Positions 1,055 to 51,117 of a stretch of DNA of 64,000 bases are shown here, piece after piece. Numbering within the stretch: position 1 is the first letter of the stretch; each line of letters opens with the position of its first letter. The position numbers were made by a program, and so were the translations under genes. The stretch comes from Microbotryum silenes-acaulis (Eukaryota; Basidiomycota; Microbotryomycetes; Microbotryales; Microbotryaceae): contig QPFY01000002.1 in assembly GCA_003665825.1 (NCBI GenBank), positions 992,001 to 1,056,000 of the forward strand. Reading direction: 5' to 3'. Under the pieces are notes generated by a model that was not told where the DNA came from, did not search any database, and was given only the letters and a program-made list of their open reading frames with translations.

Positions 1055-3174
1055 ATGTCCAAGTCACGCCAATCGTTGTCGACGCTTGCCTCGTCGCTGC
1101 AGCTGGCGTCGCTCGCCCGAGTCAACCCAGCCGCGCGTCAGGTGCAGGCCGCCCAGCGCTCAGCAGTCGCCGCGACCTCCGCCGTCCAGAAGCATACCCG
1201 CCAGAACCACCACCACGCCGGCAATCCAGCTGTCTATCGTGTCGTGCGCGATGTCCAGGGGAGTTGCTTCGTTGTAAAGCGACACCGACGTCCAGCCAGC
1301 CCCGAATCCGCCGCAGCGTCGGCGTCGGCCTCGTCCAACCGTAGGGCCCCCTCTGCTCTTGGCGGTCCTCAACGGCCGTCAGCGCCGATAGCGGCATCAA
1401 CTTCCTCGTCAGCCTCTTCGGCTCTCGGAACTTCTCAGTCATCATCCAGATCCGCCAGCACCTTGGCCTCATCATCGAGTAGTCTGGGTCGTTCGCCATC
1501 GATTTCTACAACAGCAGCAGCTGCAACAGCGTCAAGTTCAGTCTCCCTGTGTCGGGCATCAACTCCTCCGTCTTCGCCGAACCCGGTCGCCTACTTCCAC
1601 TCGAATGCTCGAGCTGCACACCAGCAACCTGCGCATGTATTTTCTTCGAATCTGATTCCTCCGCCGCCTCCGCCATCCTCTGCGCCCAATTCGGGACACT
1701 CGTCTCGGCACTCGGGCAGTTCTGGCTCGGGCAGCTTGCCCTCGAACGATCCGTCCTCGCTCCTGTCGAGTCCGCACCACCACGTCTCGGCCTCGCGCAC
1801 AACGTTATCCTCCGATGGGCCGTCTTCATCCTCTTCGGCCCCGTCCACGTCGGCGTCGACCAGCACCTCTTCCTCTGCCCCCGTCGCTGCCTCCTCAGGT
1901 GCAGCAGCCTTGTTCAGTTCCGACCACGCCCGTTCTTTCCCCCACCACGCCCTACCGAGCTTCTTTGGCACCTCGTTGAGCATTGCGCGAAGAAGCAATC
2001 TTGTATTCAGGAATGGCGCGTACGGAATACCCAAAGCCGGTAGGGAGAAGGATCTGGCTACGAAGGGGAAGGAGAAGGCCGATGGAGAAACGGGCGAGCT
2101 GGATCATTATCTCAGCGTCAGCATTGGAGAGGATGCCGTGAGTCTTCGCTGAAAAGGCAATAAAAGCTTAATGATAGTGACTAATCATACGCGATTGTGC
2201 ATGGCGCAGTACTTTTTAAGGACGGATTCTCTCGGTGTCGCTGATGGAGTCGGTGGATGGTCAGGCCATGCCGGTGCAAACCCGGCCAGGTGGTCGCGCA
2301 AGTTGATGCATCGTGAGTCGGCCTGCTTGCCTCGCGCCCGATTTCTCGTGGACGTTTATGAACTTAACCAATCATTGAAAATGCTCACAGACTGCTCCAA
2401 CGAGCTAGCACGCTACGAGAACGTCGACGACGAGTTGTTCTTGCGATACTACGAAGTCGATCCCGTCGAGGTCCTGCAGAGAGCGTTCGAAAAGAGTCTC
2501 GCGGAATGCAAAGATGAGGTGAGGACTTTTTGTCGGCGCAAATACGAATGAAGAGGGAACACGCACTGATCGGGGCTTGTACTACAATGTAGGGCGTTAT
2601 TGGTTCGTCGACCGCTTTGCTCGCCGTTTTGCGCAATGATGAATTGCGTCTCGCGAACATGGGCGATTGCTGCTGCTGCATCATCCGTGGCAACGACTAC
2701 ATCTTCCGCTCAGAGGAACAACAGCATTCCTTCAACTTCCCGTTCCAGGCCGGCACGACGTCCAAGGACACGCCCATCAAGGATGCGCAGAGGTTCAATA
2801 TCAAGGTCCAAAAGGACGACATCGTTATCCTGTCCTCCGACGGCCTGATGGACAACCTCTACGACGAAGACATTTTGGAAGAAGTGCTGAGATTCGTGGC
2901 TTTGACACCCGCGCCGACCGCTTCGTCTTCAGGCTCTGCACCCCCTGGCGTCACGGGACCGAGGTACACGCTGAATCGATTCTCGCCGCAAGCCGTCTCC
3001 GAGGCGCTCAGTCTCCGAGCGAAGAGCGTCTACGAGGACCCACGCGCCGTCAGTTCACCCTTCCAACAACGCGCCGTCGAGGAAGGCATTCACTTTGTCG
3101 GTGGCAAGAGGGACGATATCACGACTTTGATTGGCGTCGTTGGCGAATTGGAAGCTAGTCCGGACAGGAGATGA
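1055..3174 (+). CDS. PTC7: Mitochondrial-type PP2C protein phosphatase (PTC7-like)
   Basis: Metal-dependent Ser/Thr phosphatase of the PP2C/Ptc7 group; yeast Ptc7 acts in mitochondria on CoQ-biosynthesis proteins. Exons 1055-2137, 2210-2312, 2391-2518 and 2593-3174 give about 631 aa. Catalytic signatures appear in order: GEDAYF across the first junction, GVADGVGGW (about residue 370), GSSTALLA, NMGDCC, LSSDGLMDN, and a C-terminal GGKRDDIT. The first ~60 residues are rich in Arg/Ser/Ala and nearly free of acidic residues, as in a mitochondrial presequence. A 300-residue Ser-rich linker follows, longer than in yeast. The start is the first in-frame ATG; the frame opens earlier only with TTG. 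Function is by family; the exact N-terminus is less certain. Confidence 0.9.
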
Positions 3175-24106: not shown

Positions 24107-25573
24107 ATGGCTCCACCTCAAGCGTCAGTACCAGCTCAACTCGAGGGACTACGCCTGGAGCCAGCTGAGGTGTCATTCAATTGCACAGGTCACCCTCTGC
24201 GGAAGGTGCTGCCGAGCCGTCGAGCTCGACCTCAGTCCACGTCAAGCCCTACGACGCTGCCTCGGATGCTGCACCGACAGCTCGACAACTGGCCGAAATG
24301 GAGGAGGACGAGCACGAGCACGAGCACGAGCACGAGGATGATGCCGACTTGGAGGAACTGGAGAAGGAACTGGATGAGAACTTTGACCTCGGCGGTTTCA
24401 GGGAGCGGAGGATGGAAGAGCTCAAGTCCCAGTACGGGTGCTCTCGCGGGATACAGCATGTGTATTCCATCAGCATCACTGACCGAGATCCCGAATGGGC
24501 TCGACTTTCATAGGATGCAAGAGATACAAAAGATGAGGCAGAGCGATTTTGGAAAGTACAACGAGTACACCAAGGAGAAGGACGTGATCTCAGCTACCGC
24601 GTATGTCCACCCCGTATCCCTCCCACGGACCGGTCCAAAAAAAGCCCACGTCGCGACGCGTCGAGCTGAAGCCATCTCGTTTTGGCAATTCGTACATCTC
24701 CCCGGGGCGATGGCTCAACCCGCAACAGCAAAGCAAGTCGATCTCTCGTCCACTTTTACCACCGAGACTTTCGGAGATGCAAGATCATGGATTCGCATCT
24801 AGAGGTGAGCCGATCTATCTCCGAAGAAGAGATCTCTCGGTCTCCAAGCGGTGGCCATCTTCGGCCTTGCTCCATCTTCGAGCGCGCGCACATGGCACGA
24901 GCTCGAATGACGAGGCGCCGCTGCACTCGTCCGAGCTAACCAATTCTTGACTTTCCACCATGCACAAAGTGACGCCGTGGCGTGCTAGGCACAAAGAACA
25001 CGCTGACAAAGAGGGGTTCCTATTGTCGTCGCATAGAAACTCGCCAAGAAACACTTTGACACACTCTTCATCAAGATCGACGTCGCGAATGCCCCTTTCC
25101 TCGTAACCAAGATGGACGTCAAGGTCCTGCCCTGCGTCATCGGCTTCGTCAAAGCCGTCTCAAAGTTAAAGTAGGTCACTCTGCCGATCGTCAAAGGGCA
25201 ACTAGTGAAAGGAAGTCTAACGCAGGCATCTTCACCTTCGGCAGGATCGTCGGCTTCGAAGAATTGCCAGGTGGTGACAACTTCACGACTTCGGCGTTGG
25301 AATTTGGTTTGATCCAAGCCGGTGGGTCTCAAACCTATTAGTGCCGCGCCACGAGCTCGCGTGGGCGACCGGGACGAGGGCTGATCTAATCTGACCGGCT
25401 TTTCCAATTTTTTTGCTCCAACAGATGTGATCAAGGACCCCAAATTGACGGCAACCGCAAGTCGTGTGATTGGTGCAGCCAGGAGCTCGGGAAGCTCCAA
25501 CTCAGCCAGCCGAGGGATCCGAAGTAGCTCCCGCATCGGCGCTAGCAACGACGAGTCGGACCTGGACGATTGA
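24107..25573 (+). CDS. PLP1: Phosducin-like thioredoxin-fold protein (TXNDC9/Plp1-like)
   Basis: Relative of TXNDC9/PhLP3 and yeast Plp1, which bind the CCT chaperonin during tubulin folding. Seven exons: 24107-24123 (17 nt), 24189-24431, 24514-24600, 24729-24804, 25037-25170, 25245-25321, 25425-25573; 260 aa. An acidic His-Glu repeat precedes a helical segment (LEKELDENFDLGGFRERRMEEL, then MRQSDFGKYNEYTKEKDV). The thioredoxin fold follows: SLVHFYHRDFRRCKIMD, HFDTLFIKIDVANAPFL, MDVKVLPCVIGF, IVGFEELPGGDNFTTSALEF. The CxxC redox pair is absent, as in the family. The 232-nt fourth intron is long for this genome. The C-terminus is Ser-rich and ends in an acidic DESDLDD. Confidence 0.85.
24307..24336 (+). 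repeat. GAGCAC microsatellite (His-Glu repeat)
   Basis: Hexamer run encoding alternating Glu-His in the TXNDC9-like protein's N-terminus. Confidence 0.85.
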
Positions 25574-26129
25574 TGAAGTGAAAGGGGTTCTGCCCGAATC
25601 GTGCCTTACCTAGGTAGGTACCCAGGTAGGTGCCATGGCTACCTGCCTACTGTGTGCCTGCCAATACCAACTCTACTTCAAAGCTAGTCTCTGTAATGTA
25701 AACTCTACACGCATGTGCCGTGCGGGGTGCAGAGGCTACCGCTGCAACGAGAAGTGGTGTGCTCGGACTTACAAATACCCAGGTATGTACGGATGGCTAT
25801 CCGATCGATACCAACAAGTACCTACACGTGCTGGGTTAGCACTACCCACACTTTCAGCAACTCAGTGGCCTGAAATAGTCGCGTTGTGCTCCTGATAGGT
25901 TTGTAAGAATCGGAGTAAAACCCTGACCTGAGGGACAGCTGCCCCACCGAGGTCGGTGCGCCGGAAGCCCTAGTCGAGCCAGGCGGCGATGATCGATGAT
26001 CGGACAATATTTCATTTTGAAATGTTCTTTTCGGCCTTTGCTGCAAGGATTTGACGCGCCGATCGAGCTCGCGCGCTCGGGCCTCCCCTCTCCTCTCTCC
26101 CCTGCTGAGCTATAGCTGTGCCTCGTACA
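25574..26129. other. Gene-poor stretch with AGGTAGGTAC-type words
   Basis: Begins with several ctaggtaggtac/ccaggtaggt words (about 25610-25635), which recur near 27820-27845 and 28000. No gene was found. Confidence 0.5.
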
Positions 26130-26623
26130 CACGCGGGCTCACAGGCGGTCACTCGCGCTGCACGTTCCCTTCAGGGCCTTCACTGCACCGTCGACGTCTC
26201 CACCAGCCTCTGCCGCTGCGTTTACCACCGTTGATACGGGTGCGTTCCTCACTCCCAAGATCACCTCACAGTTGACGAAGTCGCTGACCGAGCGTTTCAT
26301 CTTGCAGGACGTTTCTCGGCTAGCCACGCCTAGCTCGTCTAAATCCTCGACGTGGCTCTGTCCAGGAGTGACTCGGGGTAAGTGTTATTGGACACCCAAG
26401 CTTGTTGCACGGTGAACTTACCGCTTTGATTCCTACAGTGATCTTGCCAGTCCTGTACGAGCAGTTAGTCGGTAGTCCTTGTTGGACCACTTCTCTGACT
26501 CGCAACCCCTGCATCTCTCAGCAGTCCTTTGAAAGGCACGAGATCGCTCTCGAGCCTCACTGGTTCCGAGTCCAAACTGAAAGGATCAAATGGTGTAATT
26601 CGCAGGCGAAGAAAGATTACTAA
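26130..26623 (+). pseudogene. Gene fragment without start, unknown family
   Basis: A coding-like frame (ALHVPFRAFTAPSTSPPAS, then FLTPKITSQLTKSLTERFIL, STWLCPGVTR) ends at donor 26378. It resumes at 26439 (VILPVLYEQLVGSPCWTT) and stops at 26621-26623. Intron consensus and phase agree. There is no ATG in frame before an upstream stop. Its second half is copied, inverted, at 27314-27611. It is probably a remnant of a host gene or transposon-borne sequence; no family was recognised. Confidence 0.35.
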
Positions 26624-27008
26624 AAGGACTAAAGTCAAGAGACGCGGCGGCGCCGCGCGCGAGGGCAAGCGTGAGGCCGCAGAGGTTGGCTCGAGGTCGT
26701 CGTGAGGCGTAAGCGGAGCGGCGCCTTACATCCTTCTGCCGAACCCCCTGCTCGAAACGCAGCCTCTGCCAGCCTCCGCGGCATCACAGAGTTCCGCTTG
26801 TTCTTGCAAAGGTATGCTGAGACGAAGGTAGCTATCCCCACTCTCACCAGTTGCAGCCAACTGACATCACCCTGAGCTTGTTCTTGCAAAGCCAAAGCTC
26901 CTTCTGATCGATCCCACCCTCCATCCCTTGTCACTCGCGTGAAAACTACTTCATTCTTTCAAAAATTCTTCCTTTCTCTTCTTCGGTTCAGTCTGCCTTC
27001 CCGCTACG
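26317..27008 (+). repeat. Left arm of large inverted repeat
   Basis: Reverse complement of 27126-27611, nearly identical apart from a few transitions and one ~207-bp block (26524-26730) present only here. The block is bounded by TCCTT on both sides. The arm includes the intron and second exon of the gene fragment, so the copy was made at DNA level. Confidence 0.9.
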
Positions 27009-27125
27009 AGCGGTGTGTCCAACCGTTCAACAAGAACGAACTATCCAAGGGCGTCTGACAACGAAAGACGAGATTGAAACCCAGCGAGTGTAGCGAGATG
27101 GAAGCCAAGAAGATACGGAAATGAA

Positions 27126-27611
27126 CGTAGTGGGAAGGCAGACTGAACCGAAGAAGAGAAAGGAAGAATTTTTGAAAGAATGAAGTAGTTTTCACGCGAG
27201 TGACAAGGGATGGAGGGTGGGATCGATCAGAAGGAGCTTTGGCTTTGCAAGAACAAGCTCAGGGTGATGTCAGTTGGCTGCAACTGGTGAGAGTGGGGAT
27301 AGCTACCTTCGTCTCAGCATACCTTTGCAAGAACAAGCGGAACTCTGTGATGCCGCGGAGGCTGGCAGAGGCTGCGTTTCGAGCAGGGGGTTCGGCAGAA
27401 GGACTGCTGAGAGATGCAGGGGTTGCGAGTCAGAGAAGTGGTCCAACAAGGACTACCGACTAACTGCCCGTACAGGACTGGCAAGATCACTGTAGGAATC
27501 AAAGCGGTAAGTTCACCGTGCAACAAGCTTGGATGTCCAATAACACTTACCCCGAGTTACTCCTGGACAGAGCTACGTCGAGGATTTAGACGAGCTTGGC
27601 GCGGCTAGCCG
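27126..27611 (-). repeat. Right arm of large inverted repeat
   Basis: Pairs with 26317-27008 and lacks the 207-bp block. With the 117-nt spacer (27009-27125) the two arms could form a long hairpin if transcribed. Confidence 0.9.
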
Positions 27612-27620
27612 GGAGTCGAG

Positions 27621-27646
27621 CCGCCCTCGAGCGCGCTCGAGGGCGG
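27621..27646. repeat. Perfect 26-bp palindrome
   Basis: ccgccctcgagcg is followed directly by its reverse complement, 10 bp beyond the right arm of the inverted repeat. A zero-loop cruciform site, with no protein-coding context. Confidence 0.9.
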
Positions 27647-29397
27647 GACTCCGCGGACGTCAGCGAGATTAGGCACCCTGCCACTGCACTCAAAAGGCTC
27701 GTCGATGGTCGCGGCAAGTCGTACTCAGTTAAAGTGTAGACGAATGGAGCTCGGATGTGTCGGTAGACTAAAGTTATAAATTCAACCGCTTAGATGCCGT
27801 TCACGGGGACATGGTAGCTAGGTAGGTAGGTACGCAGTAGGTAAGTCTTGTCAGTCCTCTTCAACTCGCCCGCAATCTATCTATGGACCCTACTTTGAGC
27901 ATTCGGTAACGAGCCGTTTCAAGAGAACAGTACCTAGCTTCCCTACCCAGATAAAGTAGAAGGCGGTGCCAAATGAGCTTCACTCTGTCGTAGCTAGCTA
28001 CTTAGGTAATACACCGACGCCTAGTACTAGCACCACTGCTCGACATCAAGTTTGGGTACGCCCTAGGCAAAGCCGGCCGCCAGCACGTGATTCGACCAGC
28101 CCGGGGTTAATAGGCAGGACTCAGCGTAGGTGTGAAAAGCCTGTGCGTGGATTTGGGTACCTGAAGCGCTTGCTAGGAATATTTTCTTGCTCGTACGATG
28201 ACGCTCCGCGGAGTCTGGAGCATGTCCCTCCAAATTGAAGTCGAACCAACACAACCCCTGAGTGTCGAGGACCTGAGATTAAAGGCACTAGAGCGCTTGC
28301 GTGTTTGTGCTGACTACTATCCTGTTCAGGAACCGAGCCGGCAAGTGAACAAAGGTCTTTTAATTGTGGCCAAATGGGGCCGGCCAGCCGTGCCTGCCAG
28401 CACCACAGACCCTTGACGCTTAGCAGACCGCTGTGGTGAGGCTCCGGGACTCCCCGTACGTGTTCCATCCGTGCTGGCGCCGGGCGAGTCTCCTGGAAGC
28501 CGAAGGATGAAGCGCGCGTGCCGCATTAGACCCGGAAAAGGCATTTCGCACCGTCCATTTACACGTCCCTTTGAAACCCCGGCTGGGCTCGCCAGCGCAC
28601 GCCACGAGAGCGCTCGCGCGCGACTGCGCAAGTTCCATCTCAAAAGAGAAATTGCAGCCACGGGAGAGCGCTGCCACCTTTTCGAGCTAGTCCTGACAAG
28701 CACAGCCTCAGGATTTCGAGGATGCTGGCCCCAAAGGCACTCAATGGTCCTTCGGTTTTTGGGCAACGAATTGTGATGCAATCGCCGAAGAAAGCAAGCG
28801 GCGAACGCAGAGCACGGATGGCTATCGCCGCGTGTCGCGCTCGTTCAGAAATTGTGAGGATTAGAATGGGGGAGCTCTGATCAGCCTAGCTACGGATCGT
28901 TGAGCGCGAAAGGGAAAGCTCGTCGGTGATCGTCTTCGAAGATCCCCAGTGAGGAAAAGGGCGTCCCTGTGAGAAGAGCTGGCTGCTGTTCGCCCCTTCG
29001 GAGGTAGCAGTGGCCTGCCTATGGGAAGTAGGTCTCCGAAGTCTCCGAGCGACTGGCGCACGCTGACGCCGTCAAGTTCAGATCAGTCGATGCCCCATTC
29101 CATTTTTTCGCTCTTGCGCTCAGCTTCTCCGTGCTGCGCCCGCCGAGTTGCCACGACGTTACATCGCTTTTCACTTGGACCGCGAACTTCTTGCTTCACT
29201 CTGAGCTGGTGGTGACTCCTGGTTGAGTCTCATCCCCGCCTTTCTGCGCTCGATTCAGACCCTTCCCCTGCGAGCACTGCAACGCCCCTCGCCCGCTTTG
29301 TGTGCGCCGGCGTCTGAGAACTTCGAGCCACCCTGCCACTCTTCTGCGCTGGTTCGCACGTACTGCTCAGACATCCCGATTTAGTTGTGGATCTACC
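27647..29397. other. Gene-poor stretch
   Basis: Contains repeated AGGTAGGTAC-like words (27820-27845) and several short open frames on both strands (for example 28326-28781) without motifs, splice support or codon bias. The final ~300 bp is pyrimidine-rich and is the likely promoter of the next gene. Confidence 0.5.
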
Positions 29398-49523: not shown

Positions 49524-49596
49524 GGCCGGATAGCTTAGTTGGTCAAAGCTTTTCCAATGAATGGAAGCGACCCAGGTTCGACTCCTGGTCCATGCC
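49524..49596 (+). tRNA. tRNA-like element, probably a tRNA pseudogene
   Basis: 73 nt with a perfect A box (TAGCTTAGTTGG) and B box (GGTTCGACTCC). The D stem (GCTT/AAGC), T stem (CCAGG/CCTGG, loop TTCGACT) and a five-pair anticodon stem form. The acceptor stem pairs at only 4 of 7 positions and the anticodon loop AATGAAT lacks the invariant U33, so the identity (UGA if read literally) is unreliable. A T-rich tract follows within 20 bp. Most likely a decayed tRNA gene or a tRNA-derived element. Confidence 0.5.
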
Positions 49597-51117
49597 AGCC
49601 GTTCTTCTTCTTTTGTTGATCATTTCGGGATCATCGTTGATTCCAACAATATCAAAGAAGGTCGAGAGATGACCTGTATACAACAGCAAAGTATGCAATA
49701 TTGGGCACGATGATGCATGATTATGAATGATGATGCTGAATGATTATGGCGATGATCGACCGAGGTCGAATCCGAGGGGGGCCGGGGTCCCTGTGTGACC
49801 GACCGAGGGCGAGAGGTGAAGTCGCACGAGCTGACTAACCATACTTCGACGTCTTGTGAGCTTCACCGGCAACATATCCTACACGTGTGACTTTCCCAAC
49901 TGTCGCTCCAAAAGCCCATCTCCCCCTCCTTCAAATCTAAACACAAGTCCGAGAGCGCGAAGTGGGAGCCTTGTCGAGTTCTTTCTCTCACTTCTTCCCA
50001 ATCACTTTCAGAGCCTCGTACAAATGCGGGTTGGAGCGTGGCTGATCTCGGTCGGAGATACATACAGCTCGGTTTAGTACAGATTATTGAACAGGTAGCA
50101 TTTTCAGTCACCAGGATTGCCGAGTATCAGATCGAATGAGCTCGAGGCGATCTCCTCAGGCTGTGCGACCTCGTGCTGTTCGACCGATCGACCGGTGCGG
50201 GCAGCAACGCCGCGAGCTGACCAACTGATCTCGAGCAGTAGGTTGTACAAGTCAGGCCAAAGTCAATATAGCTATAGCGGGGTTCTGGAAGGTGAGGACG
50301 ATCATGCAGTCTTGGGCTTGGGGTCAGCATGAGTCCGTGCACCACCAGCTGATCAGAGACGGCCGTCCCACCCGATCGACGGCACTCGAACAAGAGCAAG
50401 AAGAGCAACACTCGTAGAGCGGGAGGTTAATACTTTGGGTGAATCATCATCGTTAGTCTTGAGTAACAAGTGGCCGAAGGTGATCCCGACCTTTCGCCTT
50501 CGCTATGCCGAAAGTGCAGAGCCAGGCGGATGAGGAAGAAAGAGGAAAGAGAAAAAGAGGTGTGGGAGGTCACTACTCACTTGGGGGTGGCCAAGCGTGC
50601 GTGATTGTATGAGGTATATCAATCACACCATCTCTCTTGATCTTATCCAGCTCCGTCCAGTGCCGAGCGCTAAAGGCCGAAGGCGGCCGAGCGCGGCGCA
50701 GCGCAGATCCGAAAGGTAATCGCGGACAGGGGACCGTGCACCCCACATTGAAGTCAACCCCCACCCCTGGGAAAGACCGAATAGTTGTCGAGCAACCTCG
50801 GTCAAGTTTCAGTAAGTAGTTTTAGCTCTCAGAATCATCCCAGATTTGAGATCGCCGCAATCAATACAGTGGTTGGTGCCCCAGCAGCTTGATTCGAGCT
50901 GGGGCGACTTCGATTGACTGCGAACTCCGACGCGGAGCTGGGTTGGGGTGCGGGGTGCACCGTGACTCGAGAGCTCCGAGACGGAAGAAAGAATGAAAGT
51001 CCCTGAGTAATTAAAGGAATTGGATCTAGATCGAGTAGACACCTTCTGCTTCAGAGGTAATCCGGCTGCTTAGGAGACAATAGGTCGTGGGCTGCAATTC
51101 AAAAGAGTAGCTCAATC

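What the first reader, a model, noticed from the sequence alone, without database searches (positions are those of the whole stretch)
26317..27611. Large inverted repeat that could encode a long hairpin RNA
Arms of 692 and 486 bp, nearly identical, are separated by a 117-nt spacer. They include an intron and exon of a gene fragment, so this is a DNA-level inverted duplication. A transcript would fold into a >450-bp duplex, the form of a natural hairpin-siRNA locus that could silence a parental gene elsewhere.
Basis: partly seen in the sequence, partly recalled or inferred. Interest (0 to 1): 0.75.

Follow-up and report, generated by a model that had tools for sequence, protein, structure and literature searches.

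The report
Folded-back transposon copy, possible hairpin RNA
In a fungal genome one copy of a short mobile-element-like repeat has been copied back onto itself in reverse, so that any RNA made from it would fold into a very long hairpin; this looks like a copying accident, and whether the cell uses it to silence the other copies is untested.

Summary
The inverted repeat is real and at the stated coordinates: arms 26317-27008 (692 nt) and 27126-27611 (486 nt), spacer 117 nt. No sign of a gene fragment was found. Both arms belong to a dispersed ~970-bp repeat with ten other near-complete copies returned from this genome. The locus carries the repeat's own 5' end (26022) and the last 8-9 bases of its 3' end (to 27619). 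Between them lies repeat 1-781, then ~901-296 inverted. One replication template switch inside one copy explains arms, spacer and lost segment. The arms share three changes absent from those ten copies, so they come from one parent. The extra 201 bp in the left arm is a later insertion of another repeat; the right arm keeps the empty site. Folding gives 483 inter-arm pairs and -1130 kcal/mol, against -407 to -449 for five controls. Piwi, RdRP and paired RNase III domains are present, so silencing of the repeat family is possible. No transcript or small RNA could be tested. A good example of a known kind, with a modest chance of being a working hairpin-siRNA locus.

The parts
26022..27619 (+). 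whole rearranged repeat copy: true 5' end at 26022, true 3' end at 27619, interior folded back
26022..27008 (+). forward part of the repeat, positions 1-781, carrying a 201-bp insert; contains the left arm 26317-27008
26530..26730 (+). 201-bp insertion of an unrelated dispersed repeat (TG...CA ends, solo-LTR-like or MITE-like), target duplication TCCTT at 26525-26529 and 26731-26735
   Evidence: 42 matches listed in the genome, the window's own included; ends and target duplication
27009..27125 (-). 'spacer': repeat positions 782 to about 898-901 in inverted orientation, present only in the right copy
27126..27611 (-). right arm: repeat positions ~781 down to ~296, inverted; 27399-27403 is the empty site of the 201-bp insert
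27611..27619 (+). last 8-9 bases of the repeat's 3' end (GGGAGTCGA), back in forward orientation; the first G can belong to either side of the junction

Best explanation
A copy of a ~970-bp, apparently non-autonomous dispersed repeat was rearranged in place by one replication template switch. Synthesis ran forward to position ~781, switched to the complementary strand at ~899-901, copied backwards to ~296, and rejoined the forward strand at ~964, eight or nine bases before the repeat's end. That made perfect inverted arms (296-781) around an inverted loop (782 to ~901). Later each arm collected substitutions and a 201-bp element landed in the left arm. If the locus is transcribed, the RNA would form a ~480-bp duplex that Dicer could cut into siRNAs matching the other family copies. 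SHOWN: arms, family, ends, shared private changes, insertion order, predicted folding, presence of RNAi-type domains. INFERRED: the replicative mechanism (other inverted-duplication mechanisms give the same product). UNTESTED: transcription, small RNAs, silencing. The default reading is a mutational by-product without a selected function.
For: Ten other near-complete copies in single orientation define the order and, between them, the ends. The window maps as 1-781 forward and 901-293 reverse by blastn, followed directly by the repeat's terminal bases. The junction-2 fit gave switch points 296 and 962-964 with an exact 8-base tail and 2-3 mismatches in the arm for 4 of 6 template copies, and the equivalent for L058. 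GGGAGTCGA occurs twice in 64 kb on both strands (1.1 expected), so one falling at the junction by chance is of the order of 1e-4 (my estimate). Both arms share 371 T>A, 402 A>G and 515 delC, absent from 10 of 10 other near-complete copies; the deletion lies in a C run and is the weakest of the three. In positions 300-770 each arm has 3 private singletons and the arms differ at 6 of 471 sites. The right arm holds one TCCTT where the left has TCCTT-insert-TCCTT.
Against: Junction microhomology is short or absent. The junction-1 script found a fit with only 2 of 6 template copies (L059: 1 mismatch, points 782 and 899; L058: 2 mismatches); for the other four its search string found no anchor. At junction 2, L059 fitted badly (6 mismatches), probably because its copy was cut one base longer. 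A hairpin-capped break or recombination between sister strands could give the same product. Gene conversion between two separately inserted copies could also create shared private changes. Nothing shows that the locus is transcribed.
Confidence: 0.78

Rival explanations
1. A working hairpin-siRNA locus that silences its own repeat family, like Mu killer against MuDR in maize. Transcription would come from a promoter in the repeat or by read-through from the + strand gene whose stop I read at 25571-25573. Compatible with the best explanation as to origin.
For: 483 inter-arm pairs; Piwi domains at two loci, RdRP, and a 1388-aa frame with two RNase III domains; of about 572 arm 21-mers, 83 to 361 are present in each of the 10 other near-complete copies.
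Against: No expression data; no compensatory changes between the arms; each arm has 3 private singletons against 1-6 in the six closest copies, so the stem is not specially preserved; a 201-bp insert interrupts one arm; only one copy with this arrangement was returned.
Confidence: 0.15
2. Two separately inserted copies in opposite orientation, later homogenised by gene conversion.
For: The repeat is dispersed, and 277 of 278 identity in the inner arms could be conversion.
Against: The inner ends stop at 781 and ~901 with no complete element on either side, no second 5' end, and the 3' terminus rejoined in forward orientation; three shared private changes.
Confidence: 0.07
3. Hairpin-siRNA locus against a host parental gene.
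For: The 98-aa frame is open over its whole length in 2 of the 33 places matched.
Against: All 33 matches lie at loci of the repeat family; 6 frames reached no Pfam cut-off, the only hit being DUF5405 at E 0.19; frames broken or shifted among copies.
Confidence: 0.03
4. Assembly or library artefact (fold-back read).
For: Palindromic chimeras are known in long-read libraries (recalled); no reads were available.
Against: The arms differ by private substitutions on both sides, by a younger insertion and by their extent; a second folded-back family member, L067, has other breakpoints.
Confidence: 0.03
5. A fold-back transposon that moves as a unit, with the arms as long terminal inverted repeats.
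For: The true ends of the repeat flank the composite; a second inverted member exists (L067).
Against: No copy returned has this arrangement (their lists are limited to scored candidates); L067 has different turning points, and exact searches for the repeat's 3' end found none in L067.
Confidence: 0.04

Closest known systems
Mu killer (Muk) of maize
   Same: Partial inverted duplication of one transposon copy, proposed to give a long hairpin RNA that silences the family (PMC3440606, passages seen).
   Different: Muk silences genetically and some of its transcripts are known; that paper finds short antisense transcripts, unable to form large hairpins, in silencing plants. Here the arms are shorter, show no sign of coding, and are untested.
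Template-switch mutations (four-point model)
   Same: A reverse-complement copy between four switch points makes a perfect stem in one event (PMC8794818 and PMC7954356, passages seen). The order here is 3-1-2-4.
   Different: Described there at short range (largest pattern in the rRNA study up to 59 bp, and it failed that study's quality control); here the inverted copy is about 600 bp.
Small inverted triplications
   Same: Replication-born inverted segments in yeast and cancer genomes (PMC13334657, passages seen).
   Different: Those have direct copies on both sides (DUP/IN/DUP, about 148/160/148 bp, junctions of 6 bp); here 782-963 was replaced and no third copy exists.

Membership tests
Hairpin-siRNA (hpRNA) locus | long inverted repeat able to form extended dsRNA | tested here: met
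   483 inter-arm pairs, 278 uninterrupted, -1130 kcal/mol; five controls of 1301 nt at -407 to -449
Hairpin-siRNA (hpRNA) locus | Dicer and Argonaute in the genome | tested here: met
   Piwi at two C7 loci, two RNase III domains in one 1388-aa frame on C5, RdRP on C11. Only these domains were sought; gene models were not read
Hairpin-siRNA (hpRNA) locus | transcript through both arms | not testable with these tools
   no RNA data
Hairpin-siRNA (hpRNA) locus | sized small RNAs and target silencing | not testable with these tools
   no small-RNA data
Product of a four-point template switch | all junctions explained by one backward excursion on the complementary strand | tested here: met
   switch points ~781, ~899-901, ~296, ~964; the junction-1 script fitted 2 of 6 templates, the rest had no anchor
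Product of a four-point template switch | arms derive from one parental copy | tested here: met
   three shared private changes, 0 of 10 other near-complete copies
Product of a four-point template switch | junction microhomology | tested here: inconclusive
   0-3 bp, with one mismatch beside junction 1
Helitron (for the parent repeat) | 5'-TC, 3'-CTRR, insertion between A and T without target duplication (rules recalled) | tested here: inconclusive
   read on the minus strand the ends are TC...ACA, so the 3' rule is not met; no target duplication; a T follows in 14 of 17 copies read, but the A expected before the TC is there in 3 of 14 with that end (my count). Helitron-type domains are very common in the genome (138 matches)
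TIR DNA transposon or MITE (for the parent repeat) | terminal inverted repeats and target duplication | tested here: not met
   common flank words found are inconsistent in length and place

The most novel reading that the evidence does not exclude
A basidiomycete counterpart of Mu killer: a single template-switch error turned one copy of a non-autonomous, perhaps Helitron-related repeat into a hairpin-siRNA source that silences its whole family, meaning that TE families can by accident generate their own RNAi trigger in one step.
Probability: 0.13. Interest if true: 0.65.

Novelty: new member of a known kind. Interest (0 to 1): 0.32.

Why it matters
It shows how a long hairpin locus can arise from one repeat copy in one step, with junctions and order of events still legible. 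If it makes siRNAs, it would be a natural RNAi trigger against a repeat family in a fungus with the RNAi gene set, directly testable by small-RNA sequencing. If it does not, it is a useful warning that a 480-bp stem alone does not mean a functional hairpin gene.

Tried and rejected
Parental host gene: rejected. Two independent insertions: disfavoured. The copy at C1:1891651 as one end of an autonomous parent: rejected; the ~8.3 kb splitting that copy begins with AT-rich DNA encoding a LAGLIDADG-like stretch (my reading) and looks like a later insertion; its middle was not read. Filing the repeat as a canonical Helitron: the 3' end and target-site rules are not met. Identity of the + strand gene upstream: Pfam and PDB sequence searches of its short exons gave no family above its cut-off (one weak DUF2630 match, E 0.061) and no chain; I recall it as thioredoxin-like only. 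Species: not named; the best-scoring named protein relative is from Rhodotorula sp. JG-1b at 49% identity, so Microbotryomycetes-like is an inference. Four of seven paper searches looked for RNAi or fungal hairpin literature. No fungal TE-derived inverted repeat of this design stood out; only listings were read, plus the abstract and outline of PMC9757828, so no claim of absence from print is made.

Full report
What is there. The inverted repeat exists exactly as reported: left arm 26317-27008, right arm 27126-27611, 117 nt between. The inner 278 nt match at 277 positions, the outer ~215 nt at about 97%. Folded as RNA, 26314-27614 gives 483 inter-arm pairs with 278 in an uninterrupted run, at -1130 kcal/mol. 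Five controls of the same length, among them the same sequence with the right arm turned round, give -407 to -449.

What the arms are. Searching the window's own genome (29.85 Mb, 88 contigs, unnamed) with the outer arm segment gave 20 places, 12 of them near full length: the two arms and ten others. The inner segment gave 18 matches, again 12 near full length at the same loci. These lists hold scored candidates only and are lower bounds. I fetched the ten (L057-L066), one partial copy (L067), nine distant relatives (L068-L076) and three further partial 5'-end matches (L077-L079). The ten define a repeat of about 970 bp: eight of them reach the full right end or lack at most its last base, L063 has a deletion near that end, and L066 stops short of it. 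The ends are (A)TGTTCTTTTCGG... and ...GGGAGTCGA, without terminal inverted repeats or a consistent target-site duplication. Seven distant relatives (L068-L074; L070 is split by an insertion) share both ends with a different middle. I found no sign of coding. None of six frames tested reached a Pfam cut-off. The frame around VLYEQLVGSPCW breaks or shifts in several copies. All 33 six-frame matches of one 98-aa frame lie at family loci. The class of the repeat is open. The genome is rich in Helitron-type domains (138 matches), but the repeat meets the Helitron terminal rules only in part.

How the locus is built. Mapped on a full copy, the window reads: positions 1-781 forward (26022-27008), then ~901 down to ~296 inverted (to 27611), then the last 8-9 bases of the repeat, GGGAGTCGA, forward again (27611-27619). 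The 'spacer' is thus positions 782 to ~901 in inverted orientation. The segment 782-963 is missing in forward orientation. This is what one template switch with four points (~781, ~901, ~296, ~964) produces; the order 3-1-2-4 gives a stem with an inverted loop. The script fit of junction 2 agreed in 5 of 6 template copies, with one poor fit (L059). That of junction 1 worked for 2 of 6 (1 and 2 mismatches) and found no anchor in the other four, so junction 1 rests mainly on the blastn mapping and the alignment. Template-switch stems are described at smaller scale (PMC8794818, PMC7954356; passages seen), and inverted triplications from replication errors are reported in yeast and cancer (PMC13334657; passages seen).

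One parent, and an order of events. Both arms carry 371 T>A, 402 A>G and a one-base deletion in a C run at 515, none of which occurs in the ten other near-complete copies. In positions 300-770 the arms differ at 6 of 471 sites, three private to each arm, while the six closest copies carry 1-6 singletons each and differ from each other at 2-11 sites. The folding-back is thus of roughly the same age as the spread of these copies, and the stem has not been specially preserved: I see no compensatory changes. The 201-bp block in the left arm is a different dispersed repeat (42 matches listed) with TG...CA ends. Of 30 copies examined, the window's own included, the script scored an exact unshifted 5-bp duplication in 13. 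Seven more (L037, L050-L055; the last six share one flank) show it by eye. The other ten show a shifted one (3) or three bases or fewer (7). The right arm still has the single TCCTT, so this insertion came after the inversion.

A second case. L067 (C8:451500-457000) is another folded-back member: arms 2327-2558 and 2810-3042, 95% alike, turning after position 904. Its turning points differ from the window's, and exact searches for the repeat's 3' end (7-9 bases) found none in it. Folded alone its 716 nt give -544 kcal/mol. Of the 23 loci L057-L079 scanned with a threshold of 80 bp and E 1e-10, two had an inverted repeat: L067, and L066, where it lies outside the repeat.

What it may do. Piwi domains at two loci (one stretch is read with two stops inside, perhaps an intron), an RdRP and a 1388-aa open frame with two RNase III domains are present. 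Of about 572 distinct 21-mers of the arms, 83 to 361 occur in each of the ten near-complete copies, 25 in L067, 3 in each of L068-L073, 15 in L074 and none in L075-L076. No 18-mer is shared with window 1-26000 or 27701-64000. A transcript would therefore act on the repeat family, not on a host gene found here; host genes elsewhere were tested only through. The nearest precedent is Mu killer of maize (PMC3440606; passages seen). That paper itself reports short antisense transcripts, not the hairpin, in silencing plants, which is a caution. No RNA data were available, so the silencing role stays at about 0.15.

Verdict. Observation confirmed, interpretation corrected: a folded-back copy of a dispersed repeat, most simply the scar of one replication template switch. 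It is structurally able to be a hairpin-siRNA source, but this is unproven.

Noticed in passing
window 27621-27646: A perfect 26-bp palindrome starts one base after the rearranged repeat's 3' end; six bases of that end (27612-27617) are also complementary to the six just beyond the palindrome (27647-27652). Not seen in the short flanks printed for other copies.
   Followed up: partly
L066 3605-4409: An 805-bp stretch that matches its own reverse complement at 77% lies outside the repeat copy: another large imperfect palindrome.
   Followed up: no
L070 from 3408, and C1 to about 1900690: A subfamily copy is split by about 8.3 kb that begins with AT-rich DNA encoding a LAGLIDADG-like stretch (perhaps of mitochondrial origin, my reading) and holds a Helitron-type domain at C1:1895637-1896224.
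   Followed up: partly
whole genome G000: 138 matches to the Helitron_like_N family in a 30-Mb genome (150 of 153 candidates scored), several in frames over 1000 aa: a strong Helitron expansion.
   Followed up: no
window 26530-26730: 201-bp dispersed repeat with TG...CA ends and 5-bp target duplications; a solo LTR or MITE whose full-length partner was not sought.
   Followed up: partly
L060 3457-5501 and L062: Two copies of the repeat lie near the same other repeat of at least 2 kb (97.5% identical), in opposite relative orientation.
   Followed up: no
window 49524-49597: Rfam reports a tRNA here (38 bits) that ARAGORN did not list.
   Followed up: no
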